Part shown: piece after piece, positions 18,354-38,065 of the stretch
Position numbering within the stretch: position 1 is the first letter of the stretch
Layout: every line of letters begins with the position of its first letter
From: a virus
Reading direction: 5' to 3' (one strand)
IMG/VR virus record: IMGVR_UViG_3300018423_000025
Location: 1-38,448 of that record
Length of the DNA stretch: 38,448 nucleotides
The notes under the pieces: model-generated
Database searches by the model: none
What the model was told of the DNA's origin: nothing
The model's input: the letters and a program-made list of their open reading frames with translations, nothing else
Translations under genes and position numbers: made by a program

Positions 18354-18365
18354 GCAGGAGTAAAT

Positions 18366-20195: not shown

Positions 20196-20245
20196 TTTCC
20201 AGCGTATAACTGGTAAATACATAAACATAACAAGGTTAGGTAACT

Positions 20246-23839: not shown

Positions 23840-24187
23840 ATGGATGAAAGACTAGAAAAAGCTCTTGACTTCAGTAACTATATGATTACTTTAGACAATA
23901 CAAAAAGAGTTTTAAAAGAACAATATCAAGATGATCTATTACATTTTTGTAATGGTGGGCAGTTTACAGTAACTCCTGGACTTGTAAGTTTTTGTCAGAG
24001 TTTATTAGCACTAGGGCAAGAAGAAACTGTGATTATTGATGATAATGATATTCCTATTCATATTGAAGATTTAAAAAAGTTTGCTAATGAAATGGTTAAT
24101 GTTTACACAAAAGCTGCAAACAAGTATATTACAGAATATAACAAGTTAAAAGTAAACAGAACAGTTGAAGGTATTATTGAAGTATGA
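23840..24187 (+). CDS. Small conserved T4-like phage protein, 115 aa
   Basis: ATG 23840 follows AAAAGGAG at seven bases, the best ribosome site in the operon. The sequence (DERLEKALDFSNYM near the start, LKEQYQDDLLHFCNGGQFTV, then IIDDNDIPIHIEDLKKF and EYNKLKVNRTVEGIIEV) is mostly helical and hydrophilic. I recognise similar small proteins at the end of structural modules in marine T4-like phages, none with a known function. It overlaps the following glycosyltransferase by four bases (ATGA), so expression is coupled. No membrane segment, signal peptide or catalytic motif is visible. A chaperone, regulator or structural accessory are all possible. Confidence 0.65.
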   Translation: MDERLEKALDFSNYMITLDNTKRVLKEQYQDDLLHFCNGGQFTVTPGLVSFCQSLLALGQEETVIIDDNDIPIHIEDLKKFANEMVNVYTKAANKYITEYNKLKVNRTVEGIIEV

Positions 24188-25029
24188 GTCAAGGTGTTGT
24201 ACTTATAGCTAGAAATAATACTGAAATCGACTATATTAAACAAGCAGTTTTTCTTGCAAAACGTATAAGCAAGTATTTAAACTTGCCCACAACATTGATC
24301 ACTGATAACATTGAATATCTACACAAAACTTATCCAAAAGATATAGATGTATTTGATAAAGTTATTGAGATTGACAATGATAAAAAGTATAGTTACAAAA
24401 AATATTTTGATGGTATTTTTTCAAAAAAACAACTAGAGTTTAAAAATGGAAATCGTAGTAGTGTATATGATTTAACACCATATGAAGAAACATTATTACT
24501 AGACACTGATTTTGTAGTATCTAATAATATTTTTAAAAATTGTTTTAACCAATCTAAAGATTTTTTGATATATGATTCTGCTTATGATTTTGCAGGGTGG
24601 AGAGATCCTAACGAGTTTACATATATAAGCGAAATAGGACCAAAGTTTTATTGGGCAACTTGTGTATTTTTTAGAAAGACTGAGCAAAATAAAATATTTT
24701 TTGATTTAGTATCGCACATACAAGATCATTATGCACATTACAGAAATCTATACAAATTAAATACAAATGTATTTAGAAATGATCATGCATTTAGTATTGC
24801 AATACATATTATGAATGGATTTACAGATAATAACTTTGCAGGTAAAATGCCAGGAACAATGTATTATTGCACTGACAAAGACGTACTTTTAGATTTACGA
24901 GAAGACAACTTTTTGTTTTTAGTTCAAAAAAGAAATGAAAGTAACGAATATACTCCTTTAAGAATAAAAGGTAGTAATGTGCATGTTATAAACAAGTACA
25001 GTTTGAATAGGATTATTGATAATGCCTAA
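24184..25029 (+). CDS. GT-A-type glycosyltransferase-like protein (281 aa)
   Basis: The N-terminus (GVVLIARNNTEIDYIKQAVF, then LAKRISKYLNLPTTLITDN) is the nucleotide-sugar binding alpha/beta start of GT8-like folds. LLLDTDFVV at D107-T108-D109 is the DxD metal site. The middle has a YWATCVFFRKTE segment, and a second half (NDHAFSIAIHIMNGF) resembles the acceptor side of GT-A enzymes. It is paralogous to the next gene: both begin by describing a query residue, a YIKQA helix and an LDTD site. The start overlaps the previous stop by four bases. The donor sugar and acceptor cannot be read from the sequence. A cytoplasmic enzyme acting on a host glycan or phage component is inferred. Confidence 0.7.
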   Translation: MSQGVVLIARNNTEIDYIKQAVFLAKRISKYLNLPTTLITDNIEYLHKTYPKDIDVFDKVIEIDNDKKYSYKKYFDGIFSKKQLEFKNGNRSSVYDLTPYEETLLLDTDFVVSNNIFKNCFNQSKDFLIYDSAYDFAGWRDPNEFTYISEIGPKFYWATCVFFRKTEQNKIFFDLVSHIQDHYAHYRNLYKLNTNVFRNDHAFSIAIHIMNGFTDNNFAGKMPGTMYYCTDKDVLLDLREDNFLFLVQKRNESNEYTPLRIKGSNVHVINKYSLNRIIDNA

Positions 25030-25852
25030 CTTTACTATGTTAGCAGAAAATAAAAACAGTGATTATATAAAGCAAGCCTATCTTGCTGCATGTAGTATTA
25101 AACGATATAATAAAAATGCAAATATCTGTTTGATTACAAATGATGAAGTAAGTGCAAAACAAAAAGCAGTATTTGATGAGATTGTAGATATTCCGTGGTA
25201 TAGCGAAACTGAATCTAGATTTAGTGCTGAACACAGATGGAAAGTGTATCATGCTACACCGTTTGATAAAACATTTGTATTAGACACAGATGTATTAGTT
25301 TTAGAAAATATTGAACACTGGTGGAACTTTTTAGAAAAGAAAGATTTGTATTTTACATCAAATGTAAAAACTTACAGAGGAACAAAATACACAACTAACT
25401 ACTACAGGCAATCATTTAGAACACATCAACTTCCTGATATTTATTGTGCATTATATTATTTTAAAAAGTGTGACTTTTCGCATAAGTTTTTTAAACTACT
25501 AGAAATGATAATGAATAACTGGGAGATGTTTTATGGACAGTTTGCAGGAGGTAAATACTTTCAGAAGTTTCCAAGTATGGATGTAAGTTGTGCTATTGCT
25601 GTAAAGTTGCTTAACATTGATAAACAAGTAACTAGTAATACAAGTTTTCCTAATATTACACACATGAAGTTGCACGGACAAGATTGGTGGGATATTAAGA
25701 CCGAGACATGGCAAGATAAAGTTGGCGTGTATTTAGATAACGATTGCGACTTGTTTATTGGTAACTACAAACAATCTGGTGTTTTTCATTATACTGAAAA
25801 AGACTTCCTTACTGACGAAATAGTTGAGATATTTGAAAAAGGAATAGCATGA
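25022..25852 (+). CDS. GT-A-type glycosyltransferase-like protein, paralogue (276 aa)
   Basis: The start is ATG 25022. A TTG two codons earlier (25016) is only three bases from AGGA, whereas the ATG is nine bases away, so the ATG is preferred. It overlaps the previous gene by eight bases. Motifs are AENKNSDYIKQAYLAACSIK, ICLITND, HRWKVYHATPFDKTFVLDTD (DxD at D88-T-D90), IYCALYYFKKCDF, and FPSMDVSCAIAVKLL, matching the layout of the preceding gene. The C-terminus has HMKLHGQDWWD and GVFHYTEKDF, a usual His-containing end of GT8-like enzymes. The pair may transfer different sugars or act as a heterodimer. The substrate is unknown. Confidence 0.7.
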   Translation: MPNFTMLAENKNSDYIKQAYLAACSIKRYNKNANICLITNDEVSAKQKAVFDEIVDIPWYSETESRFSAEHRWKVYHATPFDKTFVLDTDVLVLENIEHWWNFLEKKDLYFTSNVKTYRGTKYTTNYYRQSFRTHQLPDIYCALYYFKKCDFSHKFFKLLEMIMNNWEMFYGQFAGGKYFQKFPSMDVSCAIAVKLLNIDKQVTSNTSFPNITHMKLHGQDWWDIKTETWQDKVGVYLDNDCDLFIGNYKQSGVFHYTEKDFLTDEIVEIFEKGIA

Positions 25853-26421
25853 GCGTATTTGTAAATGTTGACAAATATGTGTCATTTGATGAAAATGGCA
25901 CACTCTTAGGTATTTACAACAGAGAACCTACTGATGCAAACTACATCAAAGTAGAGCCTAGTGATGTGGAAACATTAATCACAGGTAAAGAGCAGTTTAG
26001 ACATTATCTAGTTATATTTGATAGTGATCAAAAAAAGCATGTTCTAAAACATATCTATAATGAAGATAACTACATGCCAAATATCAATGATCAAATATTT
26101 AAACTTCCTAGAACAAAAAACAATCCAGACTTAACTGTAACACAAGACATAAAAAATAAAAAATGGACATTTACAGTTGCAGAAGAAATATGCGAAAACT
26201 TTAGAAAAAATAACTTAAACTTTAACCAAGTAATGGGTTTTAGTATTACACGTAAAAATAATCCAAATCATTTACATCGTTTTTTTACTATTGACATTTC
26301 TAGTGTGATTACAGGTGATTATTCTATTGACTTTGACAGCGATTTAGAACTTGACCCTGACGGGTTTAGCGTGTATACTTCTAAGAGACTAGAAAGTTAT
26401 TATCACGAGGTATTACTATGA
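25849..26421 (+). CDS. Orphan protein of unknown function, 190 aa
   Basis: Starts in an ATGA overlap with the previous gene and ends in an ATGA overlap with the next, so it is firmly embedded in the operon. The first part (FVNVDKYVSFDENGTLLGIYNR) looks like a small beta-rich domain that begins with an asparagine-rich turn. The second part has VTQDIKNKKWTFTVAEEICENF, and HRFFTIDISSVITGDYSIDFDS is beta-rich. I do not recognise a family. There are no cysteine clusters, no signal peptide and no membrane helix. In context it could be a partner, a substrate or a structural component for the adjacent glycosyltransferases and radical SAM proteins. Nothing in the sequence decides between these. Confidence 0.6.
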   Translation: MSVFVNVDKYVSFDENGTLLGIYNREPTDANYIKVEPSDVETLITGKEQFRHYLVIFDSDQKKHVLKHIYNEDNYMPNINDQIFKLPRTKNNPDLTVTQDIKNKKWTFTVAEEICENFRKNNLNFNQVMGFSITRKNNPNHLHRFFTIDISSVITGDYSIDFDSDLELDPDGFSVYTSKRLESYYHEVLL

Positions 26422-27335
26422 CTGAATTTAGGGTATTAGATTATGATATAATTTACCTAAGCTATGATGAGCCAAATGCTGAAAAGAACTATGCAGACTT
26501 GTGCAAAAAGATTCCTTGGGCAAAAAGAGTACATGGTGTTAAAGGTAGCGATGCAGCACACAAAGCCTGTGCTGAGTTATCAGAATCTGATAGATTTATT
26601 ACAGTTGACGGTGATAATATTATTAATCCTGACTTCTTAACAAAAAGTTTTAATTTAGATGATCACGAAGATGGACATTGGAATAAAAATGTTAGTTTAG
26701 ATGAATGTGTAATCAGTTGGAGTGCAAAAAACACAATCAACGGATTAGAGTATGGCAACGGTGGTATCAAATGCTGGCCTAAGCAAAAAGTATTAACCAT
26801 GCGTACTCACGAAAATGCTGATCCTAATAATGCACATGCACAAGTTGATTTTTGTTGGGATATTGAATACATTCAGATGAATGGTTGTTATAGTGAAATA
26901 ATGAATAACGGATCTCCTCAACAAGCATGGAGAGCAGGTTTTCGTGAAGGTGTAAAGATGGCACTTGATAGAGGACTAAAGCCGACAGTAGAAGAGTTTC
27001 AGAAGAATCATTGGAAGAACTTGCATAGATTATATGTTTGGTTAATGGTAGGTGCAGATGTAGAAAACGGCGATTGGGCAACCTATGGCGCAAGAGAAGG
27101 CTTGTACAAAACCATGTGTACTGATTGGGACTTTGTAAATGTGCGTGACTTTGATTGGTTAAATGAATATTGGGATAATAAAGATATTTCAGATATTGAT
27201 CAACAATCACAAGAACTTGGATACAAGTTGATCGAAGAACTTGAGTTGCCTATTGCTGCTGAGCCATTAAACGGCAATCAAAGTTTGTTCTTTAAAACTG
27301 TATACACCAATCCGCCTAGAACAGCAAAGAGATAA
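26418..27335 (+). CDS. Glycosyltransferase-like protein with DGDN motif (305 aa)
   Basis: The N-terminus YDIIYLSYDEPNAEKNYADL followed by RVHGVKGSDAAHKACAEL and FITVDGDNIINPDFL (D64-G-D66-N67) is typical of a phage protein family usually labelled glycosyltransferase. The GT-2-like features are a first strand ending in a YLSYDEPNA loop and a DxD-like metal site. Further on, WSAKNTINGLEYGNGGIKCW and DFCWDIEYIQMNG may form the acceptor pocket. It starts in an ATGA overlap and ends one base before the first radical SAM gene. It is unrelated in sequence to the two GT-A genes above, which suggests at least two linkage types in the pathway. Donor and acceptor are unknown. Confidence 0.6.
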   Translation: MTEFRVLDYDIIYLSYDEPNAEKNYADLCKKIPWAKRVHGVKGSDAAHKACAELSESDRFITVDGDNIINPDFLTKSFNLDDHEDGHWNKNVSLDECVISWSAKNTINGLEYGNGGIKCWPKQKVLTMRTHENADPNNAHAQVDFCWDIEYIQMNGCYSEIMNNGSPQQAWRAGFREGVKMALDRGLKPTVEEFQKNHWKNLHRLYVWLMVGADVENGDWATYGAREGLYKTMCTDWDFVNVRDFDWLNEYWDNKDISDIDQQSQELGYKLIEELELPIAAEPLNGNQSLFFKTVYTNPPRTAKR

Positions 27336-27336
27336 T

Positions 27337-28719
27337 ATGTCAGAAAACACAGACAAGTTAAAAAGTATTAATGCTATTACTACACGGCATTTTTCACCTA
27401 CATTTTGTTTTGCAAAATGGTACCATACAACAATATATTTGCAAACAGGTGAAACACACAGTTGTTATCACCCTGCTCCGCATCAGATTGATGTTGACGA
27501 GCTCCTAACCAATCCTAGTGCGTTACATAATACAAAGCAAAAAAAGCAAGAACGCAGAGAGATGTTAGAAGGCAAACAATGCAATGGTTGTAACTATTGC
27601 TGGAATATTGAAAACATGGGCGACGATTATATTAGTGATCGACATATACGTAGTGGTAGTATTTACAGCGAAGAAAGATTACAAGAAGTAAAGTTTAATC
27701 CTTGGGACTTTAATGTTAATCCTGAATACATTGAGATTTCGTTTGGTAACGAATGCAACTTCCGTTGTGGGTATTGTCACCCGAAAGCCAGCAGTAGATA
27801 TTATAACGAAATACGACAGCACGGTCCGTATGATATGGTTAAAAATCACAGAAATGATATTGATTGGTTTCGTGTATACGAAGAAGATCGCAACCCTTAT
27901 TTACGTGCTTGGTGGAAATGGTGGCCCGAAGTTAGCAAGACACTGAACATTTTGCGTGTTACTGGCGGAGAGCCTACAATACAAAAAAGCACATACAGGT
28001 TGTTTGATGAACTTGAAAAGGATCCAAAGCCGCATCTTGAACTTAATGTAAACAGTAACTTAGGCGGTAAAGAAAAACAACTTGAAAAGTTTACCGATAA
28101 TGTTAATAGTTTATTAAGCCAAAATAAAATCAAAGCATTTAAACTTTTTAGCAGTATTGATACTTGGGGCAATCGTGCAGAGTATATTCGTGACGGATTA
28201 GATATTGAAGTTTTTGAACGTAACCTAGATTACTTTATGCGCAATACAACTGCACCGGTGACATTTATGATTACGTTTAGTCTTTTTAGTGTAACAACAT
28301 TTGAAACACTACTTGAAAAAATGTTAGAATGGCGCCGTAAATACAACGATGTTAACAGTGGTAGATGGCAAAGAATACATTTCGATACACCATATCTAAA
28401 AGAACCTTTGCAATATGATATAAATATTTTGCCCAAAGAACAATACTTACCTTACATGGAAAAGCATTTACAGTTTATCAAAGATAATGTGCAAGAAGGT
28501 AGTAAACATCATTTTAGTGAACTAGAGTATGAAAAGTTTCGCAGGGTAGTTGATTATATGAAAACTACTCAATACACACCTGATAGAGTTAGAGAAGGAC
28601 GTAGAGACTTTTGGAACTTTTTTAAAGAACAAGATCGCAGACGTAATCTTGACTTTGAAGCTACCTTTCCTGAAATGAATGACTTTTTTGAGTTGTGTAA
28701 GGAAGCTAATGGATTTTGA
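27337..28719 (+). CDS. Twitch-type radical SAM protein, variant 1 (460 aa)
   Basis: Radical SAM enzymes cleave S-adenosylmethionine at a 4Fe-4S cluster to start radical chemistry. The cluster motif CxxxCxxC is C140-NFR-C144-GY-C147, and SAM-binding TGGEP is at 209-213. The N-terminal region has a second cysteine set (C24, C43, C82, C85, C88) that fits the auxiliary cluster of twitch-domain radical SAM proteins, placed before rather than after the core. The C-terminal ~170 residues (IHFDTPYLKEPLQYDINILP, then FPEMNDFFEL) close with the FPEM-type end also seen in the next two proteins. It lies one base after the GT-like gene and overlaps the next radical SAM gene. The substrate is not known; peptide, glycan or nucleotide are all open. 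Confidence 0.85.
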   Translation: MSENTDKLKSINAITTRHFSPTFCFAKWYHTTIYLQTGETHSCYHPAPHQIDVDELLTNPSALHNTKQKKQERREMLEGKQCNGCNYCWNIENMGDDYISDRHIRSGSIYSEERLQEVKFNPWDFNVNPEYIEISFGNECNFRCGYCHPKASSRYYNEIRQHGPYDMVKNHRNDIDWFRVYEEDRNPYLRAWWKWWPEVSKTLNILRVTGGEPTIQKSTYRLFDELEKDPKPHLELNVNSNLGGKEKQLEKFTDNVNSLLSQNKIKAFKLFSSIDTWGNRAEYIRDGLDIEVFERNLDYFMRNTTAPVTFMITFSLFSVTTFETLLEKMLEWRRKYNDVNSGRWQRIHFDTPYLKEPLQYDINILPKEQYLPYMEKHLQFIKDNVQEGSKHHFSELEYEKFRRVVDYMKTTQYTPDRVREGRRDFWNFFKEQDRRRNLDFEATFPEMNDFFELCKEANGF

Positions 28720-29938
28720 TAAAGAAAAGTTATTGAACAGTAAAACGTTTTGTATGTTTCCGTGGATACATATGAATGTTACGCCAAAAGGAGATGTATA
28801 TCCTTGTTGTAGCAGTGATTATACAGATCCGTTTGATAATGTAAAAAATAAACCTTTGTCTGAAATATTCAACGATGATTTGATGCGTGAACTGCGTTTG
28901 CGTATGCTCAATGATGAAAAAAGTAGTATTTGTGAATATTGTTACAAACATGAGAAAAGTTCACCTTTTAGTTTTAGAACTTATAGTTTGGAAAACTTTA
29001 GCAAATATTTTGACGAAGTTGTTCCTACTACACAAGAAGACGGAACTGTACCTGAGTTTAAAATGAGATACTTTGATGTCCGTTTCAGTAATATTTGTAA
29101 CTTTAAATGTAGAACATGTGGAGCAGAATTTAGCAGTCAGTGGGCACAAGAAATGAAACAGCACGATCATGTTCCGCCTAACTATAGGATTATAAATCAT
29201 GCAGATTCTAGTGGAAAACTTTTAGAAGAAATCAAGTCACAAGTTTGTCATATGGATATGGCATATTTTGCAGGTGGCGAACCCTTAATCACTGATGAAC
29301 ATTATCAAATATTAGAAGCCATGATCGAAGGTGGTTATAACAAACAAATCACATTACGTTACAACACAAACATGAGTAACTTTAAATATAAGAAATATGA
29401 TGTTCTAGATTTATGGAGCCGATTTAAAAAAGTTGAAATCAGTGCCAGTTTAGATCATTACGGTAAACGTGCTGAATACTTGCGACATGGAACAGACTGG
29501 GGAGTAGTTGAAGAAAATCTAAAAAGTATTAGAAACTTAGATTTTATTGATTATCAGTTTAACACTGTATTGAGCGTATTTAACTATAGAACACTAGCAG
29601 ATTTCTTTACATACCTAATGGAAAAAGATTTATTTAGACATAAAGATAGTATTAGTATATATAGGGCTATTACACCTAGTTATTTTTGTGCCCATGCAAT
29701 GCCAAAAAATCTTAAAGAAATCGGAAATAGCAATAATCAAAAGTTATATAACTTTATGCAAAACGATAACTGGTGGCCTGCTTTACACGTTAAAGATGCA
29801 GTAAGTTTTGCAAACGAGCAAGATACATGGGACGAACAAAAAGAACAGTTTCAACATCATATACAAAGACGTGACGAAATACGCAACGAAGATTTTTGTA
29901 AAACCTTTCCAGAACTTGCGGAGATGATGGATGGATAA
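28709..29938 (+). CDS. Twitch-type radical SAM protein, variant 2 (409 aa)
   Basis: ATG 28709 is preferred over an ATG ten codons earlier because AAGGAA lies just before it and its N-terminus (DFDKEKLLNSKTFC) lines up with the next gene's (DKEHLLKENKAFC). The N-terminal auxiliary cysteines are C15, C33-C34, C75 and C78, within FCMFPWIHMNVTPKGDVYPC and ICEYCYKHE. The radical SAM motif is C130-NFK-C134-RT-C137, followed by GGEP at 189-192. Later motifs shared with the next protein are FKKVEISASLDHYGKRAEY, RHGTDW, and FCKTFPELAEM at the end. It is therefore a recent paralogue of the third radical SAM gene with cysteines at almost identical positions. Overlaps with both neighbours imply coupled translation. 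Confidence 0.87.
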   Translation: MDFDKEKLLNSKTFCMFPWIHMNVTPKGDVYPCCSSDYTDPFDNVKNKPLSEIFNDDLMRELRLRMLNDEKSSICEYCYKHEKSSPFSFRTYSLENFSKYFDEVVPTTQEDGTVPEFKMRYFDVRFSNICNFKCRTCGAEFSSQWAQEMKQHDHVPPNYRIINHADSSGKLLEEIKSQVCHMDMAYFAGGEPLITDEHYQILEAMIEGGYNKQITLRYNTNMSNFKYKKYDVLDLWSRFKKVEISASLDHYGKRAEYLRHGTDWGVVEENLKSIRNLDFIDYQFNTVLSVFNYRTLADFFTYLMEKDLFRHKDSISIYRAITPSYFCAHAMPKNLKEIGNSNNQKLYNFMQNDNWWPALHVKDAVSFANEQDTWDEQKEQFQHHIQRRDEIRNEDFCKTFPELAEMMDG

Positions 29939-31214
29939 AGAACATTTATTAAAAGAAAACAAGGCATTTTGTATATTGCCATGGATTCATATGCATGCCT
30001 GGCCTGACGGAAGAGTTATGCCTTGTTGTATTGCTGACAGTGATCAACCATTTGCAAATCTTAAACAAAGTAGTATCGAAGAAGCCTGGAATAGTGACAG
30101 GTATAAAGAATTACGTCTTGCAATGCTTAATGGAGAACGTTTAGATTGTTGTAGACGTTGCTATGAGTTAGAAGATAGAACATATGTGTGGACATTACGG
30201 AAAAATCACAATCATTGGTATGGAGACAAGCATTTTGATCTTGTAAGACAAACCAACGATGATGGTAGTATTGATGAAATGCGTATGGTATACCTTGATG
30301 TACGCTTTAGCAATATATGTAATATGAAATGTCGTAGTTGTGGACCAGAACTTAGTAGTTTACATGCTAAAGAACATGGCGAGTTATATGGTAAACATGA
30401 AGTTGCAAATATTCTTAATAACGACGGCGAGATTATTATTAATATTGCAAAACAAAATAACTTCTGGGAAGACTTGCAAAAATATTTGCCAGACTGTGAA
30501 GAAGTATATTTTGCTGGAGGTGAAGCACTTATCACCGAAGAACATTACAAAATACTAGACAAGTGGCTTGAAACTAACAAAACAGATGTAGCTTTACGCT
30601 ACACAACTAACTTTAGTAACTTCAAGTACAAACGTAAAAGTATACTTGAGTATTGGAAACAGTTTAGAGATATACATGTTAGTGCAAGTTTGGATTGTAA
30701 TGGTGCAAGAGCAGAATACAGTAGACACGGCACAGATTGGAATGTAATCGAACAGAACCGTTTACAGATGATGGAAGAAGTTCCTCATGTGCATTTTGAG
30801 TTAACTCCTACCATAAGTTTATATAATGTTTGGAACTGGCCCGATTTCCATATGGATTGGGTTGAAAGAGGACTTGTTGATATTGAGAATTGTAGATTAA
30901 ACATGCTTACTGGGCCTGACTTTATGCGTGTTGATTATATACCCGAACATTACAAACAAGAGTTACGTGCAAAATATATCGATTACAAAGCCTGGGCATT
31001 TGATAAAATCAAAGATAGAGCAGTTGCAAAACCTGAAATAATCAAAGATGTAATAGGCAAAATTGATAGTGTAATACAGTTTTTTAATGCAGGCACACTC
31101 AACGAAGATAAACTTAAACAGTTTTTTGAAAACAATCATCGTCTTGATCAATACAGAGGTGAAGATTTTTGGAGTACATTTCCTGAAATGGAGTGGTTAA
31201 GAAGTTATGTCTAA
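29931..31214 (+). CDS. Twitch-type radical SAM protein, variant 3 (427 aa)
   Basis: ATG 29931 overlaps the preceding stop by eight bases, with GGAG seven bases upstream. Auxiliary cysteines are C14, C32-C33, C73-C74 and C77, in FCILPWIHMHAWPDGRVMPC and DCCRRCYELED. The core motif is C130-NMK-C134-RS-C137, and the SAM-binding glycine loop reads GGEA (196-199 region) instead of GGEP. Shared with variant 2 are DVRFSNICN, RYTTNFSNFKYK, HVSASLDCNGARAEYSRHGT and a FPEMEWL end. Conservation of both cysteine sets makes a working two-cluster enzyme likely. Paralogy with variant 2 suggests that the two act on related substrates or as a complex. Confidence 0.86.
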   Translation: MDKEHLLKENKAFCILPWIHMHAWPDGRVMPCCIADSDQPFANLKQSSIEEAWNSDRYKELRLAMLNGERLDCCRRCYELEDRTYVWTLRKNHNHWYGDKHFDLVRQTNDDGSIDEMRMVYLDVRFSNICNMKCRSCGPELSSLHAKEHGELYGKHEVANILNNDGEIIINIAKQNNFWEDLQKYLPDCEEVYFAGGEALITEEHYKILDKWLETNKTDVALRYTTNFSNFKYKRKSILEYWKQFRDIHVSASLDCNGARAEYSRHGTDWNVIEQNRLQMMEEVPHVHFELTPTISLYNVWNWPDFHMDWVERGLVDIENCRLNMLTGPDFMRVDYIPEHYKQELRAKYIDYKAWAFDKIKDRAVAKPEIIKDVIGKIDSVIQFFNAGTLNEDKLKQFFENNHRLDQYRGEDFWSTFPEMEWLRSYV

Positions 31215-32169
31215 GTTACTCAAAATCACTCCAATGGCAGAGCCTTACGCATGTATTACTTGGCAAGTCAACAACTTTTGTAACTTTCAATGTACATATT
31301 GCAATCCTGGTAACTGGGCAGGCGATGTAAGAAACAATGGTAATCTAGATCAGTATATTGAAAATGTAACAAAAATATTTCAAACGTACAAAGATAAAGG
31401 TTACAAATATTTTAAAATATTCTATAGTGGCGGCGAACCTACTCATTGGGAAAATTTTATTCCTCTTACAGAATATTTAAAAGACTGGTTAGGAGATACT
31501 CTAACAGTTAGTGTTAATACAAACTTATCTCGTCCTGTAAAATATTGGGAACAACATCATCATTTATTTGATGATATTATTGCAAGTTTTCATATTGAGT
31601 TCAGTAAAAAAGATAGATATATTGAAAATGCAAAGTTTTTGTGCGACAAAGTAAACTATTTGTGTACAAAAATGCTGATGCACGAAGAACGCTTTTGGGA
31701 GATTGTTGAGTTTGGAAATCGGGTAAGAGAAGAAGTACCAAACTATAACTTAGAATGGACACCTCTGTTTGATGAAATGAGTGTGAATGCAGGACCTTGG
31801 GAGTACAGTGATCCTGAAAAAGTAAAGTTTTTAGAAGAAGCACAGTTTGAAACTGTTGAAAAACTTCCCAAACCTTACAATCCAAACAAAGCTGTAAGCA
31901 TGGCACATTATACTGATACTATTGAACCTATTAACAGTAACAAGATTATTGCTGCTAGACAAAACTTTTTTAAAGGATGGAAATGTTTTGTAGATGATGC
32001 ACTGTTTATTAATCCTAGAGGAGAAATCAGTAGTGCAAGTTGTGGTGTAGGACGAAACCACGGTAATATTTTACAAAAAAACTTGCAATTTACCACAAGA
32101 CCTGTTATATGTAGTAAAGAGCATTGTCATTGCGGAACTGATATTATTATACCAAAAGAACGATTATGA
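31207..32169 (+). CDS. Radical SAM protein with C-terminal cysteine cluster (320 aa)
   Basis: A shorter fourth radical SAM protein with a different layout. The core motif C25-NFQ-C29-TY-C32 lies near the N-terminus and is followed by SGGEP (74-78). The auxiliary cysteines lie at the C-terminus: C260 in WKCFVDDALFINPRGEI, C279 in ASCGVG, and C302, C307, C309 in ICSKEHCHCGTD. This resembles a SPASM/twitch cap placed after the barrel, the usual order in peptide- and sugar-modifying enzymes. The middle has NTNLSRPVKYWEQHHHLFDD and IASFHIEFSK. It overlaps the previous gene by eight bases and the next by four. The substrate is unknown. Confidence 0.85.
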   Translation: MSKLLKITPMAEPYACITWQVNNFCNFQCTYCNPGNWAGDVRNNGNLDQYIENVTKIFQTYKDKGYKYFKIFYSGGEPTHWENFIPLTEYLKDWLGDTLTVSVNTNLSRPVKYWEQHHHLFDDIIASFHIEFSKKDRYIENAKFLCDKVNYLCTKMLMHEERFWEIVEFGNRVREEVPNYNLEWTPLFDEMSVNAGPWEYSDPEKVKFLEEAQFETVEKLPKPYNPNKAVSMAHYTDTIEPINSNKIIAARQNFFKGWKCFVDDALFINPRGEISSASCGVGRNHGNILQKNLQFTTRPVICSKEHCHCGTDIIIPKERL

Positions 32170-32816
32170 ATATAGAAGAATGGCAAATATTTTATAAGTA
32201 TCAAAACAGAGGAATGGTACGTCCTAACATTGTTTATGTTCCTCGCATTAGTCCAAATAAAAGCATATTTTGTATGCAATATCAATATGATCGCAGATAC
32301 TTTTTTGATAGAGCAGGATATACCCAAGCACATATCGATTTCTTTTTTGAAAATGAATGCAAATGGCTAGAGCATGTTCAAAAAGAAAAGTTTGCTCCAG
32401 AGATTATTGATATCGATAAAAAGAAACAACTGATATTTTTCAAATGGTATGATACAAGTTTAAATCATTTAATAGAAAAAGCCAAATGGAAGAATGATTA
32501 CACAAATAAAGTAAATGATGTTCTTGATGCATTAGAAAAACATAATATGATTAAAATGAACTTTTATCCTCATAATGCATATTTAGATGATAATGATAAT
32601 GTACGCATACATGATTTTTATGCATGTGCTAGTTTAAACTCTCCTTATATCCATATGGATAAAATTGAAGTTATTTTAGGTAATATCAACAAGTTTTATT
32701 ATGAAAGACATACAACTGACGGATTAGTAAATCTCAAAGATATGTATATTGAAGTTATTAAAAATAATAGAGGAGAATGGCCAGTTTGTCTAACTACAAA
32801 TTTACAAACTTACTAA
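32166..32816 (+). CDS. Small protein-kinase-fold protein with altered catalytic loop (216 aa)
   Basis: The layout resembles a compact aminoglycoside-phosphotransferase-like kinase: a helix FENECKWLEHV with a possible salt-bridge Glu, APEIIDID, a hinge-like IFFKWYDTSLNHLIE, then the catalytic-loop-like segment M131-N132-F-Y-P-H136-N137 and a metal-loop-like RIHDFY at D150. In active enzymes the loop reads H-x-D-x-H-x-x-N; here Asn replaces the catalytic Asp and the first His is Lys. The N-terminal lobe is very short and no glycine-rich loop is clear. It may be a pseudokinase, a minimal lipopolysaccharide-kinase-like enzyme, or a scaffold. It overlaps the radical SAM gene by four bases and the SGNH gene by about 30-40. 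Confidence 0.5.
   Translation: MNIEEWQIFYKYQNRGMVRPNIVYVPRISPNKSIFCMQYQYDRRYFFDRAGYTQAHIDFFFENECKWLEHVQKEKFAPEIIDIDKKKQLIFFKWYDTSLNHLIEKAKWKNDYTNKVNDVLDALEKHNMIKMNFYPHNAYLDDNDNVRIHDFYACASLNSPYIHMDKIEVILGNINKFYYERHTTDGLVNLKDMYIEVIKNNRGEWPVCLTTNLQTY
32771..32775 (+). promoter_or_regulatory. Ribosome binding site for the SGNH-like gene
   Basis: AGGAG ends one base before ATG 32777, too close for initiation there, but ten bases before TTG 32786 in the same frame. The site therefore favours TTG as the start. Confidence 0.5.
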
Positions 32817-33535
32817 TAAACGGGTGTAGTCATTCTGCAGGTAGTGAAATATTTAGAAGTGGACTAGGAGATCACCCAGAAAACAGGAAAAGATCTTTTG
32901 GAGCAAAGTTTGCTAATAGGCTAGGAGTATCCAAAGTTGATCTAAGTGTACCTGGTGCAAGCAACGATTATATTGCAAGAACAACTTTATTTTATATATT
33001 AGATAATCCTAGACGTGCAAAAAATACACTGTTTCTTATACATTGGACAGGAGAACATAGAACAGAAATGTTTTATGATACACCTGATGACAGTGGAAAT
33101 GATGTATATGATTATGTAGATTATACACCTGATAAGCAATCAGGTCATGTGCATCATGATCATAGTAGTAAGCTATTTCCAAGAAAGTTTAACAATAATC
33201 AAAAAGTTCTACGTAAACATTTATTTTATAATTCTACGCATTGGTATGTGCAAAGATATTTGAATATTATACAAACACAGGCAAATATACAAAATATCGG
33301 AGCTCAGTTTATTTTTGCAAATGCTTTCCAAGCCTGTAAAATAGGAGGCAGATATCAGTTTTATAGAAACAAAGTCGATAGGACTAGATTTAAAAACTTT
33401 GATAAGCCAGAAGAAAGTTTTTGGGAACATTGCAAGAGCCGCGGGTTTGATATTAGCGGACAAAAGTATTGGCACCATAAAGAAGATGCACACCAATACT
33501 GGGCAGATAAACTATTCGATGATTATTTCACCTAG
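32786..33535 (+). CDS. SGNH/GDSL-like hydrolase or acyltransferase, first copy (249 aa)
   Basis: The preferred start is TTG 32786 (see the AGGAG upstream); ATG 32777 would add three residues. Block I is INGCSHSAG with the putative nucleophile Ser15. Block II-like PGASND follows at about 46-51. Block V is DAHQYWADKL near the C-terminus, with the catalytic His in D-A-H. The usual GxND of block III is missing; in its place stands LFLIHWTGEHRTE, a W..R pattern also found in the two other SGNH-like proteins of the window. SGNH enzymes remove or transfer acyl groups on glycans; O-acetylation or deacetylation of a surface sugar is a reasonable inference. It is the last gene of the co-directional operon and overlaps the converging gene by 24 bases. 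Confidence 0.65.
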   Translation: MSNYKFTNLLINGCSHSAGSEIFRSGLGDHPENRKRSFGAKFANRLGVSKVDLSVPGASNDYIARTTLFYILDNPRRAKNTLFLIHWTGEHRTEMFYDTPDDSGNDVYDYVDYTPDKQSGHVHHDHSSKLFPRKFNNNQKVLRKHLFYNSTHWYVQRYLNIIQTQANIQNIGAQFIFANAFQACKIGGRYQFYRNKVDRTRFKNFDKPEESFWEHCKSRGFDISGQKYWHHKEDAHQYWADKLFDDYFT

Positions 33536-34843: not shown

Positions 34844-34852
34844 GTTTTTGTA

Positions 34853-34858
34853 TCCTTT
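34853..34858 (-). promoter_or_regulatory. Ribosome binding site selecting TTG 34843
   Basis: On the - strand AAAGGA lies nine bases before TTG 34843, whereas the first in-frame ATG would be 24 bases away. This supports the TTG start. Confidence 0.55.
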
Positions 34859-34876
34859 AGCATTAAATATATTAGA

Positions 34877-34884
34877 TATTTATA
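34877..34884 (-). promoter_or_regulatory. T4-type late promoter on the - strand
   Basis: Read on the - strand this is a perfect TATAAATA, 33 bases upstream of the TTG start at 34843, with AAAGGA between. It lies in a 51-base divergent spacer. It suggests that the antisense glycosyltransferase-like gene is late-expressed, unlike the sigma70-type operon it converges on. Confidence 0.6.
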
Positions 34885-34894
34885 GGAACATTTT

Positions 34895-35683
34895 ATGGAA
34901 GTACATGATAACGGTTTGTTGATAAATCCTGAGCGTATAAATCAAACTATGGCATTTATGGGTCCAGAAGAAGAAGAAGCGTTTAAAAAAGAGTGTGAAA
35001 GAAACCCAGAATGGGAATGGGCAAATCTTCCTATCGAATATAAGTTTAATGAATTTGGGCATAGGACAAAATCTTTAAAAGATTTGAGTCCTGGGTTTAT
35101 GATGACATTTGGTTGTAGTTATACCGAAGGTGTTGGATTACGTCACGAAGACACATGGTCTTGGAAAGTAGCCGAAGCAAGATGTACAGATGTATATAAC
35201 GCAGCAGCACAAGGAACAGGTTGCGATGTAGCATGTTATCAAGCATCACAATGGATTAAAAACGGATTTCCTATTCCACACCTAGTTATTGTTCAGTGGC
35301 CTGCACATACAAGAAAAAGTTTTGTTCTAAATAAAGATGATCATTTCGGTTTTAAAGATATGGCCGAAGATAACGGTATTGATGGCAAATGGTATAGACG
35401 AAGATATATTATGGACGAGGGTGAGTGTATCTGGAACAATCGTTTGTGGTTTGATCATTTTAATCTGTTATGGAAAAGTGTTGGTGTTCCTGTGCTTAAC
35501 TTCACATGGGAAATGGATTATCAACCTATACTTAGAAGTCCTTATCAAGTTTGGCCTATTAGATGTAAAAATGGTAGTATGAAAGCAAGAGACCTAATGC
35601 ATGATGGCATCGAGTGGCATCAAGAAACTGCTAATAAAATTTTACCGTTGTTAGATTTACCCGACTTCACGAACAAGATCTAG
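34895..35683 (+). CDS. SGNH/GDSL-like protein, second copy (262 aa)
   Basis: ATG 34895 has AGGA eight bases upstream. A 70-residue N-terminal extension (including GPEEEEAFKKECERNPEWEW and NEFGHRTKSL) precedes block I, MTFGCSYTEGVG, with putative nucleophile Ser75. Block II-like NAAAQGTGCD follows. The block III region reads LVIVQWPAHTRKSF, the W..R pattern of its relatives, again without GxND. A C-terminal RDLMHDGIEWHQETA supplies the D..H of block V. It resembles sugar O-acyl esterases or acyltransferase domains used in polysaccharide loci. The last 27 bases overlap the converging amidinotransferase gene. Function as enzyme or binding protein is open. Confidence 0.6.
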   Translation: MEVHDNGLLINPERINQTMAFMGPEEEEAFKKECERNPEWEWANLPIEYKFNEFGHRTKSLKDLSPGFMMTFGCSYTEGVGLRHEDTWSWKVAEARCTDVYNAAAQGTGCDVACYQASQWIKNGFPIPHLVIVQWPAHTRKSFVLNKDDHFGFKDMAEDNGIDGKWYRRRYIMDEGECIWNNRLWFDHFNLLWKSVGVPVLNFTWEMDYQPILRSPYQVWPIRCKNGSMKARDLMHDGIEWHQETANKILPLLDLPDFTNKI

Positions 35684-36664
35684 TGTGCAACAATGAAAAC
35701 ACCCACCTAGTGTTCTAGCATGACGCAATGGTAGCATAGCACATTCTATTCCATGTGCTTCTAATGCTTTACGAGTTGGCTCTTGATGCTCTTCTAATAC
35801 AACCAAGTTTGGATTTACACTAAACAAGTTAACATTCCACGTCCATATACTACTATTACATAGTCCTGGATAGTGTCCAGCATCAACAGGGTCTGGTGCC
35901 CAAATAATATCCCAATCGTTAAAAGGAGCAGGTAAAACATCTTTGTCTTTAATACGACTTGGATTAGCTAAAAGCAGTCCTTCACGAAGGAAAGCAACGG
36001 TGCTATCTATATGCATGTAACTATACACATTTTCAAGTCTGTGCACACGTACATCTCCTGGTTCCATAAAATCGTATCTTGGTTTATTAATAAAATCTTG
36101 TAAATATGCAGCACCTGCTTTGTTACCACTATTGCTGACCAAGTACAAAATGTCATCATTTGCACGTATAGCATTAGCAGCGTCAAAACAAGGTGCTACT
36201 TCAGTGAGGGCAAGACGATCAGGATCGCCTACACAAGTTTCATCGTACAGGTTAGTTCGATCAATCCGATGAGACATATTAACACCTGCTATGTGAGGGA
36301 GCATGTGATGAAACTCGTTGGTTCTTGCTGTTAAACTCATAGGGGCAGCAAGTAGTTTTTGGCCATGAACAAATACAGTATCACGTGGGCAATAGTTGTA
36401 ATATTCAACATCTGGTGTACGTTTAGGTCTTACAACTTCAACGCCTTCACCTTCTAAAAATTTTACAAACGTTTCAAGATCTTCGTTGCTTTCTTCTACA
36501 ACTTGATCTGGATATAAACCAGCCTTGATATCGCTTACATCTTTTTTGTCTGCATAGTTGATACAACGTAAACTTATATCCATTTCGGGAATACGGCAAT
36601 AATCGGCTACGCCAACTACAACCTTCTTTAGTGGATCCCACTCATTAGTGCTATAAATATTCAT
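35657..36664 (-). CDS. Glycine/inosamine-type amidinotransferase (335 aa)
   Basis: Amidinotransferases move the amidino group from arginine to an amine, making a guanidino compound plus ornithine through a cysteine intermediate. All key positions can be matched by eye to the AGAT/StrB family: CPRD with D95, PCFDAAN with D161, YMHID with catalytic H218, and GGCFHCCTLD with catalytic C325. The length is usual for short bacterial and StrB-like members (about 340-350 aa; human AGAT is longer). It begins at ATG 36664 with no clear ribosome site. The stop overlaps the SGNH-like gene. The acceptor could be glycine, an amino sugar or an inosamine; an aminotransferase gene two genes away supports an amino-sugar-like acceptor. 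Subcellular site is cytoplasm. Confidence 0.82.
   Translation of the reverse strand: MNIYSTNEWDPLKKVVVGVADYCRIPEMDISLRCINYADKKDVSDIKAGLYPDQVVEESNEDLETFVKFLEGEGVEVVRPKRTPDVEYYNYCPRDTVFVHGQKLLAAPMSLTARTNEFHHMLPHIAGVNMSHRIDRTNLYDETCVGDPDRLALTEVAPCFDAANAIRANDDILYLVSNSGNKAGAAYLQDFINKPRYDFMEPGDVRVHRLENVYSYMHIDSTVAFLREGLLLANPSRIKDKDVLPAPFNDWDIIWAPDPVDAGHYPGLCNSSIWTWNVNLFSVNPNLVVLEEHQEPTRKALEAHGIECAMLPLRHARTLGGCFHCCTLDLVREVG
36652..36659 (+). promoter_or_regulatory. T4-type late promoter TATAAATA
   Basis: A perfect octamer on the + strand, 25 bases upstream of ATG 36685 and followed by AAGGA. It lies inside the first codons of the antisense amidinotransferase gene, so the two divergent genes overlap in control sequence. 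Confidence 0.55.
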
Positions 36665-36684
36665 ACTATATTTAAGGATTATAT

Positions 36685-37497
36685 ATGGGTAGATTATTCA
36701 CTTTTGGTTGCAGTTTTACTAGCTACATGTGGCCAACTTGGGCAAACATTGTTGCATATGATCAAGAAGCAGAACACTACAATTTAGCATTGCCTGGTTT
36801 AGGAAATGTTGGAATACATCATAGGATTATCGAGGCAGATATAAAATACAAGTTTCAGCCCGAAGACAAAATAATGATTTTATGGACCAGTTTTAGTAGA
36901 GAAGACAGATTTATCGACGGACGTTGGCAAGCAGAAGGTAGTGTGTTTAATGCTGGTTGTAGATACGATAACCGTAGTTGGCTCAAAAATCACTGGAGTA
37001 TGCAAAACGATCTTGTAAAAAATATGACTGCTATTATTACAGTTAATAAGTTGTACAAGGATAATATTATTTGGCAAGGGCATAGTTTTACTCCATATAA
37101 TAATGAAGCAGCACTAATATACGACGAATCAGAACACTATAACTTGCTTAAAGATTTTTATTCAAAAGAAATACCTCACATAGATTGGCATATGTTTGAA
37201 ACTAATAAACCTTTTGGTACACTACAAGATAGTCATCCTGATATACTAGGTCATTTGCAAAAAGTTAGAGATTGGATTTATCCAAGTTTAGGACTAGAGT
37301 TAAGATCTAAAACTGAAGATCGTTTTACACTTATGCAACATTTTATTGTCGATTTTGTATTAGAAAATAAGATTAAGGAAGACTTAGACAAAGTATATGA
37401 TTTTATACATCGCAATCTTTATTTACGTGATGATTTTCAAGATATTAAAAAGTATTCAAGAAATATTTATGTTTTTGAAGATATGGAGTTTAGTTAA
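36685..37497 (+). CDS. SGNH/GDSL-like protein, third copy (270 aa)
   Basis: ATG 36685 is preceded by AAGGA about six bases upstream and a late octamer. Block I lies at the N-terminus (FTFGCSFTS, Ser10), block II-like LPGLGNVG near 34-41, the relatives' W..R pattern in IMILWTSFSREDRF, and block V is DSHPDILGHL with D182 and H184. The last ~65 residues (VLENKIKEDLDKVYDFIHRN and on) form a helical extension absent from the other two copies. The catalytic serine and D-x-H are kept, so activity is plausible. The three SGNH-like genes differ strongly, so they are not recent duplicates. Its 3' end overlaps the converging aminotransferase gene by 42 bases. Confidence 0.62.
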   Translation: MGRLFTFGCSFTSYMWPTWANIVAYDQEAEHYNLALPGLGNVGIHHRIIEADIKYKFQPEDKIMILWTSFSREDRFIDGRWQAEGSVFNAGCRYDNRSWLKNHWSMQNDLVKNMTAIITVNKLYKDNIIWQGHSFTPYNNEAALIYDESEHYNLLKDFYSKEIPHIDWHMFETNKPFGTLQDSHPDILGHLQKVRDWIYPSLGLELRSKTEDRFTLMQHFIVDFVLENKIKEDLDKVYDFIHRNLYLRDDFQDIKKYSRNIYVFEDMEFS

Positions 37498-38055
37498 ATC
37501 TGGATAGTCTTCTGTGCCCCAAATTTTTGGTAAGGTACTTATTGCGTCAGATAGTTTATCTAAACCTAGTTGTGCAGTTTCTGGAGTCATATAATAATGA
37601 TATCCCATAGTTGAAATATCTTGTTCAGCCCATGGTGCATCTCTATGACGCCCGTCATAACCTAGTTTAATAAGAGCATCTCTATCCTCTTTATTGTCTA
37701 ATAATATTACACCACCTCTGCCTAAACTCAAATGTTTTTTGTATTGAAAGCTGATACACATAAAGGTACCCGGTATATAACTATACTGTCGCCACATAGT
37801 TGCAGCATCTATTATTTCATCAGTAATATAATAATATTCTTTCCATCTATCTTTTGCAAAGTTCCATTTTATATTAAGTTTACTAAAGGTCATAGGAATG
37901 CTCAAGTAAGTATTTTTAGGACATTTTGCTTGATTTACTTGTTTATAACGTAAACATAGTTCAACAGCATGTGTACAACAATCTGTGCTCACTGCATAAG
38001 GTGCACCAAAAAAATCAGCTATTCTGTTTTCAAATGTGTTAACTATGTCAAACAT
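37456..38055 (-). CDS. Compact DegT/DnrJ/EryC1-type aminotransferase (199 aa)
   Basis: PLP-dependent DegT enzymes aminate keto-sugars or inososes. Recognisable landmarks in order are FENRIADFFGAPYAV, IIDAATMW with PLP-contacting D83, and ISFQYKKHLSLGRGGV with the Schiff-base lysine probably K107, then an LGYDGRHRDAPW loop and YYMTPETAQLGL. Typical members have about 370 residues. This one is about half that: the stretch between the N-terminal helix and the D83 strand is much shortened, and the C-terminal domain is nearly absent. The frame is intact and key residues remain, so it may be a minimal working enzyme rather than a decayed one. ATG 38055 has no visible ribosome site. A CATAAATA octamer five bases upstream is too close for an ordinary late promoter. 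Confidence 0.72.
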   Translation of the reverse strand: MFDIVNTFENRIADFFGAPYAVSTDCCTHAVELCLRYKQVNQAKCPKNTYLSIPMTFSKLNIKWNFAKDRWKEYYYITDEIIDAATMWRQYSYIPGTFMCISFQYKKHLSLGRGGVILLDNKEDRDALIKLGYDGRHRDAPWAEQDISTMGYHYYMTPETAQLGLDKLSDAISTLPKIWGTEDYPDLTKLHIFKNINIS

Positions 38056-38065
38056 AAGTATATTT

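What the first reader, a model, noticed from the sequence alone, without database searches (positions are those of the whole stretch)
23840..38055. Candidate phage-encoded glycan or guanidino-compound biosynthesis and decoration system
At least three and possibly four glycosyltransferase-like proteins, four radical SAM enzymes, a kinase-fold protein, three SGNH-like proteins, an amidinotransferase and a DegT-type aminotransferase lie together beside the tail-fibre genes. All fit building or altering a sugar-like product. It might remodel the host surface to block superinfection, modify the virion fibres, or make a small molecule. The combination is not one I know as a described system.
Basis: inference. 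Interest (0 to 1): 0.85.

Follow-up and report, generated by a model that had tools for sequence, protein, structure and literature searches.

The report
Phage genes for a guanidino sugar
A fragment of a probable giant water phage carries a compact enzyme that probably puts an amino group on an activated sugar and a partner that probably turns it into a guanidino group, a sugar decoration for which I found no report in viruses, next to other glycan genes and the tail-fibre genes.

Summary
The gene list is largely right: five glycosyltransferase-like genes (one cut by the window end), four radical SAM, three SGNH-like, a StrB-type amidinotransferase (AMT) and a 199-aa 'mini-DegT'; the kinase is unproven. 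'One pathway' is not supported. AMT and mini-DegT form a module: same strand in 50 of 52 loci; mini-DegT near 35 of 40 AMT clusters at >=42% identity. Mini-DegT models at pLDDT 96, Foldseek's top hit is GDP-perosamine synthase, and the PLP lysine is kept. Elsewhere a methyl-, acetyl- or formyltransferase stands in for AMT; two such caps share a locus in 4 of 111 (24.7 expected) and, in new loci, 1 of 84 (13.9 expected). Inferred: 4-keto-6-deoxy sugar nucleotide, then 4-amino (mini-DegT), then 4-guanidino (AMT), then transfer, perhaps by GT10-like GTd. Radical SAM genes look accessory: opposite strand in 12 of 13 two-stranded loci, near 7 of 20 new AMT loci. Sugar, nucleotide and target are unproven; relatedness-corrected tests have too few contrasts.

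The parts
37456..38055 (-). mini-DegT: compact DegT-type PLP sugar aminotransferase, 199 aa; proposed 4-amino sugar nucleotide synthase
   Evidence: PF01041 1.1e-13; profile vs PDB: perosamine synthetase 7e-12 with the lysine column aligned; AF2 pLDDT 96.1; Foldseek top 3dr4 GDP-perosamine synthase, VIA Z 18.5 to 3bn1; invariant D83, K107
35657..36664 (-). AMT: StrB-type L-arginine amidinotransferase, 335 aa; proposed to amidinate the 4-amino sugar
   Evidence: PHROG 25854 1.6e-27; profile vs PDB: StrB1 2.5e-101, human AGAT 6e-60, SxtG 2.4e-55; invariant D161, H218, C325
33512..34843 (-). GTd: GT-B-like glycosyltransferase, nearest in fold to GT10 fucosyltransferase; proposed transferase of the modified sugar
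   Evidence: AF2 pLDDT 86.9; VIA Z 11.5 to alpha1,3-fucosyltransferase with GDP, tied with T4 BGT 11.0; GTd-family gene on AMT's strand in 25 of 32 loci
38036..38446 (+). N-terminal part of a second GTd-family glycosyltransferase, cut by the window end
   Evidence: complete 364-aa copy in L002:7535-8629 scores 217 bits with the GTd profile
24184..25029 (+). GTa: GT-A type glycosyltransferase (weakly GT8/glycogenin-like)
   Evidence: alignment A5, invariant D107 and D109; glycogenin-1 E 6e-4
25016..25852 (+). GTb: relative of GTa (TTG start)
   Evidence: in alignment A5; Npun_R2821 family 2.3e-4, under its cut-off
26418..27335 (+). GTc: GT-A-like protein with VDGDN motif
   Evidence: A6, invariant D66; no family hit
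27337..28719 (+). rS1: twitch-domain radical SAM protein
   Evidence: NF033640 1.5e-91
28679..29938 (+). rS2: twitch-domain radical SAM protein
   Evidence: NF033640 5.5e-109; SPASM 1.9e-12
29931..31214 (+). rS3: twitch-domain radical SAM protein
   Evidence: NF033640 2.4e-114
31207..32169 (+). rS4: radical SAM protein, below the NF033640 cut-off
   Evidence: Radical_SAM 3e-6; NF033640 38.6 of 170 bits
32166..32816 (+). kinase-fold-like protein, weak; Asn where the catalytic-loop Asp is expected
   Evidence: PHROG kinase 0.0056; alignment of 6
32777..33535 (+). SG1: SGNH-like protein, DUF6071
   Evidence: PF19547 4e-12; A7
34895..35683 (+). SG2: SGNH-like protein
   Evidence: A7 alignment GCS...H
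36685..37497 (+). SG3: SGNH-like protein
   Evidence: A7 alignment, invariant G8 C9 S10 H184
25849..26421 (+). 190-aa protein of unknown family in the GT block
   Evidence: no hit; found in the same place in relatives
23840..24187 (+). 115-aa protein of unknown family between tail genes and GT block
   Evidence: no hit

Best explanation
The window is a fragment of a probable jumbo myovirus whose glycan island near the tail genes holds at least two modules. Module 1 (minus strand: GTd, AMT, mini-DegT) makes and uses an unusual sugar: a sugar-nucleotide 4,6-dehydratase (of host or phage; a candidate SDR gene lies just past the window end) gives a 4-keto-6-deoxy sugar nucleotide, mini-DegT transaminates it to a 4-amino-4,6-dideoxy sugar nucleotide (GDP-perosamine type), AMT moves the amidino group of arginine onto that amine to give a 4-guanidino-4,6-dideoxy sugar, and a GT10-like transferase attaches it to a glycan. 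Mini-DegT is a common platform to which phages (and some bacterial contigs) fit one amine cap: amidino, methyl, acetyl or formyl. Module 2 (plus strand: GTa-c, four radical SAM, SGNH proteins) builds or trims other glycan parts or modifies proteins. Shown: gene identities, linkage, the one-cap-per-locus pattern, strand separation. Inferred: each reaction, the sugar amine as AMT substrate, the sugar and the nucleotide. Unknown: whether the product sits on the host surface or the virion.
For: AMT profile nearest StrB1, whose acceptor is a cyclitol amine (recalled). Mini-DegT fold and lysine match GDP-perosamine synthase. Linkage: mini-DegT within 8 ORFs of 35 of 40 AMT 90%-clusters at >=42% identity, same strand 50 of 52. 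One cap per locus: 4 of 111 with two caps, 24.7 expected; 96 with exactly one, 51.1 expected; repeated with first-sample profiles on 84 new genes: 1 with two, 13.9 expected; 63 with exactly one, 35.7 expected. GMD beside non-AMT mini-DegT: first sample MT 22 of 22, LBH 9 of 17, FT 6 of 9; new MT 16 of 19, LBH 24 of 24; often as WbuC-cap-mini-DegT-GMD, also in 10 of 16 MAG/SAG contig loci. Cultured cyanophage S-SCSM2R has mini-DegT, 2OG, AMT and glycosyltransferases together; cultured Flavobacterium phage immuto has a mini-DegT relative, a 'pilin glycosylation protein' (PglD-like by my reading) and an epimerase gene. GTd nearest GT10 with GDP. An SDR in 18 of 18 window-like records searched.
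Against: No dehydratase within 8 ORFs in 26 of 52 AMT-type loci, and GMD in only 3 of 52; the SDR beside the window cassette is nearest to UDP-glucose 4-epimerase in the PDB (2e-31, against 1.1e-26 for dTDP-glucose 4,6-dehydratase), and the nearest dehydratase-like gene lies on the other strand in 10 of 11 two-stranded loci, so GDP and the source of the 4-keto sugar are open for the window. AMT-type loci mostly carry a 2OG-like gene (35 of 52; 18 of 20 new) whose role I cannot place; it is on AMT's strand in 28 of 36 loci but 5 of 13 two-stranded ones, and is not near the window cassette. AMT relatives below 42% identity mostly lack mini-DegT (3 of 15 have one). Mini-DegT is about half the usual length; activity is untested. 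The permutation tests ignore relatedness; on the tree only 5 independent AMT contrasts (6 for MT) exist, none of 13 tests is significant, and AMT against acetyltransferase goes neither way (1.0 same, 1.2 other). AMT types fall mainly in one clade (47 of 51 rows, itself not strongly supported). GTd ties with T4 DNA glucosyltransferase.
Confidence: 0.55

Rival explanations
1. AMT acts on a small free amine (glycine, an amino acid or a polyamine), as surveys that label viral homologues 'glycine amidinotransferase' assume, and its place beside mini-DegT reflects shared use of amino-acid donors.
For: AGAT, HsvA and SxtG are in the same superfamily; a viral gene is labelled K00613 glycine amidinotransferase in PMC8226683 (passage); distant AMTs lack mini-DegT (12 of 15).
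Against: StrB1 scores far better than AGAT (2.5e-101 against 6e-60); where AMT stands by a mini-DegT, other likely amine caps are nearly always absent.
Confidence: 0.17
2. One pathway uses all genes: radical SAM enzymes oxidise or rearrange the sugar (BtrN-like, recalled) before transamination and amidination.
For: Radical SAM genes lie within 8 ORFs of mini-DegT in 40 of 52 AMT-type loci against 13 of 59 others; in L031, L109, L154 and L160 one directly follows mini-DegT.
Against: Only 7 of 20 new AMT loci have one; the nearest one is on the opposite strand in 12 of 13 two-stranded loci; the first sample is biased to relatives of the window; independent contrasts not significant.
Confidence: 0.13
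3. The modified sugar is put on phage DNA bases, by GTd-family transferases like T4 glucosyltransferases.
For: GTd matches T4 BGT almost as well as GT10 (Z 11.0 and 11.5).
Against: No thymidylate synthase-superfamily gene (that this is the source of hydroxymethyl bases is recalled) in any of 8 window-like contigs searched, though these are fragments and 5 of 14 control genomes also lack it; relatives of mini-DegT lie among polysaccharide genes in MAG/SAG contigs (my reading).
Confidence: 0.08
4. Mini-DegT is not an aminotransferase but a deoxygenating dehydratase (ColD-like) or a non-catalytic partner.
For: It lacks much of the C-terminal part; ColD shares the fold (Z 17.2).
Against: The PLP lysine is invariant in 39 sequences, whereas ColD and E1 have a histidine there (recalled; mutant names in the titles agree); amine-modifying partners.
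Confidence: 0.1
5. The genes make a diffusible aminoglycoside-like small molecule.
For: Aminotransferase plus StrB-type amidinotransferase is the logic of streptidine formation (recalled).
Against: I noticed no cyclitol-forming gene, but made no search for one; the GMD/WbuC/GT context is that of polymer glycans.
Confidence: 0.04

Closest known systems
Mimivirus UDP-viosamine pathway (R141 dehydratase, L136 PLP aminotransferase, L142 N-acetyltransferase), fibre glycans (PMC4691112, passages)
   Same: Virus-encoded dehydratase, PLP sugar aminotransferase and 4-amino cap in one glycogene cluster
   Different: Cap is acetyl; L136 is, as I recall, full length; eukaryotic virus. Here the cap in the window is an amidinotransferase and the aminotransferase is about 200 aa
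GDP-perosamine synthase and its N-acyl/N-formyl caps in bacterial O-antigens (recalled; structures 3bn1, 3dr4)
   Same: Fold and lysine; GMD neighbour in most non-AMT mini-DegT loci
   Different: About 366 aa against 199 aa; AMT type rarely has GMD beside it (3 of 52)
StrB1 inosamine-phosphate amidinotransferase (streptomycin)
   Same: Best profile match 2.5e-101 over the whole length
   Different: Acceptor unknown here; no cyclitol genes noticed (not searched for); neighbour is a mini-DegT in phages
Synechococcus phage S-SCSM2R glycan cassette (PQ898602)
   Same: mini-DegT (annotated AHBA synthase), one radical SAM, 2OG, AMT, glycosyltransferases in one run
   Different: No twitch radical SAM array or SGNH protein annotated in the stretches seen (not the whole genome)
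Flavobacterium phage immuto cassette (MW353176)
   Same: A mini-DegT relative (29% identity) between sugar genes
   Different: Acetyl-type partner (my reading); no AMT annotated in the 18.6 kb seen

Membership tests
StrB/AGAT L-arginine amidinotransferases | sequence family and catalytic Asp/His/Cys (roles recalled) | tested here: met
   StrB1 2.5e-101 over profile positions 3-322; D161, H218, C325 invariant in 31
StrB/AGAT L-arginine amidinotransferases | amidino transfer from arginine to a defined amine | not testable with these tools
   needs enzyme assay
DegT/DnrJ/EryC1/StrS sugar aminotransferases | fold and PLP lysine | tested here: met
   VIA Z 18.5 to 3bn1, 194 residues; lysine column aligned (my reading), invariant
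DegT/DnrJ/EryC1/StrS sugar aminotransferases | full length of about 360-400 aa with C-terminal domain | tested here: not met
   199 aa; sequence match in two blocks, residues 5-52 and 97-175; the structural match reaches residue 334 of the target, so a remnant of the C-terminal part may remain. Filed as a compact relative
GDP-perosamine pathway | GDP-mannose 4,6-dehydratase in the set | tested here: inconclusive
   GMD by 22 of 22 MT-type but 3 of 52 AMT-type loci; the window's neighbour is another SDR
NF033640 twitch radical SAM | score over 170 bits | tested here: met
   rS1-rS3 307.5-382.6 bits; rS4 fails with 38.6
GT10 fucosyltransferases | fold | tested here: inconclusive
   Z 11.5 but T4 BGT 11.0; no Foldseek hit at E <= 0.001
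GT8/glycogenin (GTa, GTb) | sequence match and DxD | tested here: inconclusive
   E 6e-4 over about 100 columns; DxD invariant; Pfam Glyco_transf_8 in 1 of 25 at 0.004
SGNH/GDSL hydrolases | nucleophile Ser and C-terminal His blocks | tested here: inconclusive
   invariant GCS and His in 27, Pfam GDSL only about 0.01 in 2 of 27
protein kinase/APH fold (32166-32816) | catalytic-loop Asp | tested here: not met
   Asn at the expected place in all six aligned; the place is my reading
streptomycin guanidino-cyclitol pathway | inositol oxidation and phosphorylation genes | not tested
   no dedicated search was made

The most novel reading that the evidence does not exclude
A phage-borne, mix-and-match sugar-amine system: a minimal 195-230 aa DegT aminotransferase makes a 4-amino-4,6-dideoxy sugar nucleotide and each phage lineage fits one cap. 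In the window lineage and many others the cap is an arginine amidinotransferase, giving a cationic 4-guanidino sugar, which would be the first virus-encoded guanidinylated sugar nucleotide, shown on the virion fibres or the host surface.
Probability: 0.4. Interest if true: 0.78.

Novelty: new variant of a known kind. Interest (0 to 1): 0.62.

Why it matters
If right, phages in seas and lakes make guanidino sugars with two enzymes, an unexpected use of the StrB family outside antibiotic synthesis, and viral 'glycine amidinotransferase' labels (as in PMC8226683) may need re-reading as glycan genes. The one-cap-per-locus pattern gives a directly testable model of how phages swap the charge and shape of a surface sugar, possibly to escape receptors, superinfection or defence. 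The 200-aa aminotransferase would also be an unusually small member of its fold.

Tried and rejected
Profile searches of GTd found no believable relative (best 0.38, Ferritin in 5 of 28 members, best 1e-4, taken as spurious); the structure model was needed. The 'UGD' label in my scripts was contaminated by the GTd family (133 of 193) and is used in no claim. The exclusivity permutation does not correct for relatedness; an independent-contrast test was tried (output cut; all 13 results seen) and has too few contrasts, so I repeated the count on new loci, which are still relatives of one another. The four cap classes were chosen after looking at the first sample. Rows dropped before counts: repeated mini-DegT C-termini and proteins outside 150-260 aa, 94 of 199 as identical to old ones or repeats, then 21 of 105 by a 90% identity filter. 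20 of the 84 new genes had none of the four caps; of 17 inspected, by my reading 2 have a GNAT-like, 2 an FkbM-like and 2 a cupin gene next to mini-DegT, 4 have no gene between WbuC and mini-DegT, 7 are unclear. The distant AMT group (L051-L055, L058-L061, L064, L066, L068, L069: AMT without DegT) does not fit the model well. 2OG genes: 5 of 10 window-like contigs had a match, one strong (5e-45), the best of the other four contigs 1.8e-15, none beside the cassette. A PF16363 search is not specific for GMD: all 14 control genomes ring. Literature: no paper found that describes this module in searches (open-access library only; listings, abstract starts and passages seen, no paper read whole).

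Full report
What is there. The window (38,448 bp, 34% GC) is an IMG/VR virus fragment. Its first ORF matches baseplate wedge proteins best in jumbo phages (Agrobacterium phage Atu_ph07, 490 kb, 32% identity; Salicola phage SCTP-2; RaK2-like), so the source is probably a jumbo myovirus; the host is unknown. From 23,840 on lies a glycan island beside tail genes (one with a Collar domain). There are five rather than three or four glycosyltransferase-like genes, since the ORF cut by the window end is of the GTd family.

AMT. A profile of 31 sequences matches StrB1, the inosamine-phosphate amidinotransferase, at 2.5e-101, ahead of HsvA (2.8e-62), human AGAT (6e-60) and SxtG (2.4e-55). Asp161, His218 and Cys325 are invariant; that these are the catalytic residues is recalled.

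Mini-DegT. The 199-aa DegT protein is not a broken gene: 34 different versions of 195-233 aa were found in the first loci, with invariant residues. The sequence match to the best full-size relative is in two blocks, with a shortened middle and most of the C-terminal part missing; the structural alignment stretches further (to residue 334 of the target). The AlphaFold2 model has pLDDT 96.1 and pTM 0.92. Foldseek ranks GDP-perosamine synthase first (1.2e-9); VIA-align gives Z 18.5 to it, with several other sugar aminotransferases tied (best 19.5). So the fold says sugar aminotransferase family; it does not fix the sugar.

Linkage. An AMT scan of IMG/VR (2.9 million contigs) gave 69 loci, 52 with a DegT in the locus. 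Over all first-sample loci, clustered at 90%, 35 of 40 AMT clusters at 42% identity or more have a mini-DegT within 8 ORFs, but only 3 of 15 below that. Gene order varies, but AMT and mini-DegT share a strand in 50 of 52.

One cap per platform. Mini-DegT is far commoner than AMT: each mini-DegT scan of viral contigs stopped at about 600 stretches. Its neighbours are a GMD/SDR cluster, AMT, a glycosyltransferase cluster, a WbuC cupin, a 2OG-like protein, methyltransferase, hexapeptide acetyltransferases and formyltransferase. Within 8 ORFs of 111 unique mini-DegT genes lie 52 AMT, 24 MT, 19 acetyltransferase (LBH) and 9 formyltransferase (FT); 4 loci have two kinds (24.7 expected under independent shuffles, least 15 in 20,000), 96 have exactly one (51.1 expected, most 71). 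Because these classes were chosen after seeing the data, I repeated the count with the first-sample profiles on new loci: of 84 new non-redundant mini-DegT genes, 20 have AMT, 24 LBH, 20 MT, 1 FT; 1 has two kinds (13.9 expected), 63 exactly one (35.7 expected), 20 none. In the frame WbuC-slot-mini-DegT-GMD the slot holds MT in 33, LBH in 20, FT in 3 and something else in 12 (redundant loci counted). The frame stands in 10 of 16 loci from MAG and SAG contigs labelled Prochlorococcus, Marinimicrobia, Alphaproteobacteria and Bacteroidota (some of the 16, such as L117, may themselves be viral); none of the 16 has AMT. On the tree five labels (AMT, MT, LBH, FT, none) change 26 times where 4 is the least possible and 51 the shuffled mean, so caps are swapped; but AMT lies mostly in one clade, and with 5 or 6 independent contrasts none of 13 tests is significant; most lean the expected way, AMT against LBH does not.

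The simplest reading is that mini-DegT makes a primary amine on a sugar nucleotide and the cap modifies it. With GMD beside it (MT 22 of 22, LBH 9 of 17, FT 6 of 9; new MT 16 of 19, LBH 24 of 24) the amine is most likely that of GDP-perosamine. AMT would then give a guanidino sugar. For AMT-type loci the dehydratase is less clear: GMD in 3 of 52, another SDR in 24 of 52 (one locus has both), none in 26. The window's relatives have an SDR one or two ORFs from mini-DegT, past the window end (four loci read; an SDR found in 18 of 18 records searched); it carries S-T-M-E and YxxxK (five sequences), which I read, from recall, as dehydratase-like, yet its best PDB relative is a UDP-glucose 4-epimerase. 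AMT-type loci carry a 2OG-like gene (invariant HxD, H and R; Pfam only 0.0086) in 35 of 52 against 3 of 59 others, and in 18 of 20 new ones against 0 of 43 new MT or LBH loci; in some it seems fused to a GTd-like domain. It is absent near the window cassette. Its role is open.

GTd. The model is GT-B-like; the best VIA match is alpha1,3-fucosyltransferase with GDP (Z 11.5, rmsd 4.3 over 265), tied with T4 beta-glucosyltransferase (11.0), with no Foldseek match at E <= 0.001. A GDP-sugar donor would suit the model but is not shown.

Radical SAM, SGNH and GTa-c. In 14 two-stranded loci the nearest radical SAM gene is on AMT's strand in 1 of 13, GTc 0 of 8, dehydratase-like 1 of 11, SGNH 3 of 8, 2OG 5 of 13, against DegT 14 of 14, GTd 6 of 7 and 87 of 210 for any ORF. 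Radical SAM genes are near 40 of 52 AMT-type loci in the first sample, biased to the window's relatives, and 7 of 20 in the second. Loci such as L186, L188 and L201 show mini-DegT, 2OG and AMT with none in view, though L188 and L201 are short. So I take them as a neighbouring module. T4-like phages rich in radical SAM genes were noted before (12 in one genome, PMC5332604, passage).

Cultured phages. S-SCSM2R (Synechococcus WH7803) has glycosyltransferases, mini-DegT (annotated AHBA synthase), radical SAM, 2OG, AMT and a GT2 in a row, plus sugar epimerases and GT10/GT11 genes 32-40 kb away. Flavobacterium phage immuto has a mini-DegT relative, a pilin-glycosylation protein and an epimerase. These make the idea testable.

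Known or new. The nearest viral precedent I found is the Mimivirus viosamine pathway with an N-acetyl cap (PMC4691112, passages). I found no paper on a viral amidino-capped sugar or on mini-DegT (searches listed under Tried and rejected). An ocean AMG survey excluded genes on contigs with lipopolysaccharide-island genes (PMC11360552, passage), which may be why such loci were passed over. I rate it a new variant of a known kind: virus-encoded nucleotide-sugar synthesis with an unusual enzyme pair and a swappable cap.

Noticed in passing
L042, L044, L163, L193 (ORFs labelled OG of 553-611 aa): A 2OG-like domain appears fused to a GTd-like glycosyltransferase domain beside AMT.
   Followed up: no
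L111-L123 (genome contigs): A WbuC-cap-mini-DegT-GMD cassette stands in 10 of 16 MAG/SAG contig loci (Prochlorococcus, Marinimicrobia, Alphaproteobacteria, Bacteroidota), so the platform is probably not phage-only.
   Followed up: partly
L039, L044, L163, L193 (ORFs of 990-2199 aa): Very long ORFs with GTc-like matches lie at the end of some cassettes.
   Followed up: no
L051-L055, L058-L061, L064, L066, L068, L069: In contigs of up to 353 kb a distant AMT (34-38% identity) stands without any DegT; in the four read it follows a 2OG-like gene and a nucleotide-sugar-dehydrogenase-like gene.
   Followed up: partly
window 1874-15649: A single 4591-aa ORF follows the baseplate wedge gene.
   Followed up: no
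window 16287-21814: Three successive tail genes begin with similar N-terminal stretches (GQLWYD/GQLWFD/GQIWYD), apparent paralogues (my reading).
   Followed up: no
L002:557-5525 (right of the window in a near-identical contig): Four more radical SAM-like genes (two scanned, the others by blastp or by motif) and a 201-aa protein without NCBIfam hit lie past the window end.
   Followed up: partly
S-SCSM2R record 190687-190784: A wcaG ncRNA is annotated just before the sugar epimerase and GT10/GT11 genes of the cyanophage.
   Followed up: no
S-SCSM2R SSCSM2R_305: The mini-DegT is annotated as 3-amino-5-hydroxybenzoic acid synthase, likely a misnomer.
   Followed up: partly
L117 (PBPT01000016, 335 kb, labelled Neomarinimicrobiota MAG): Carries mini-DegT, GTd, GTc and radical SAM genes like the phage loci, so it may be a phage genome binned with a bacterium.
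   Followed up: no
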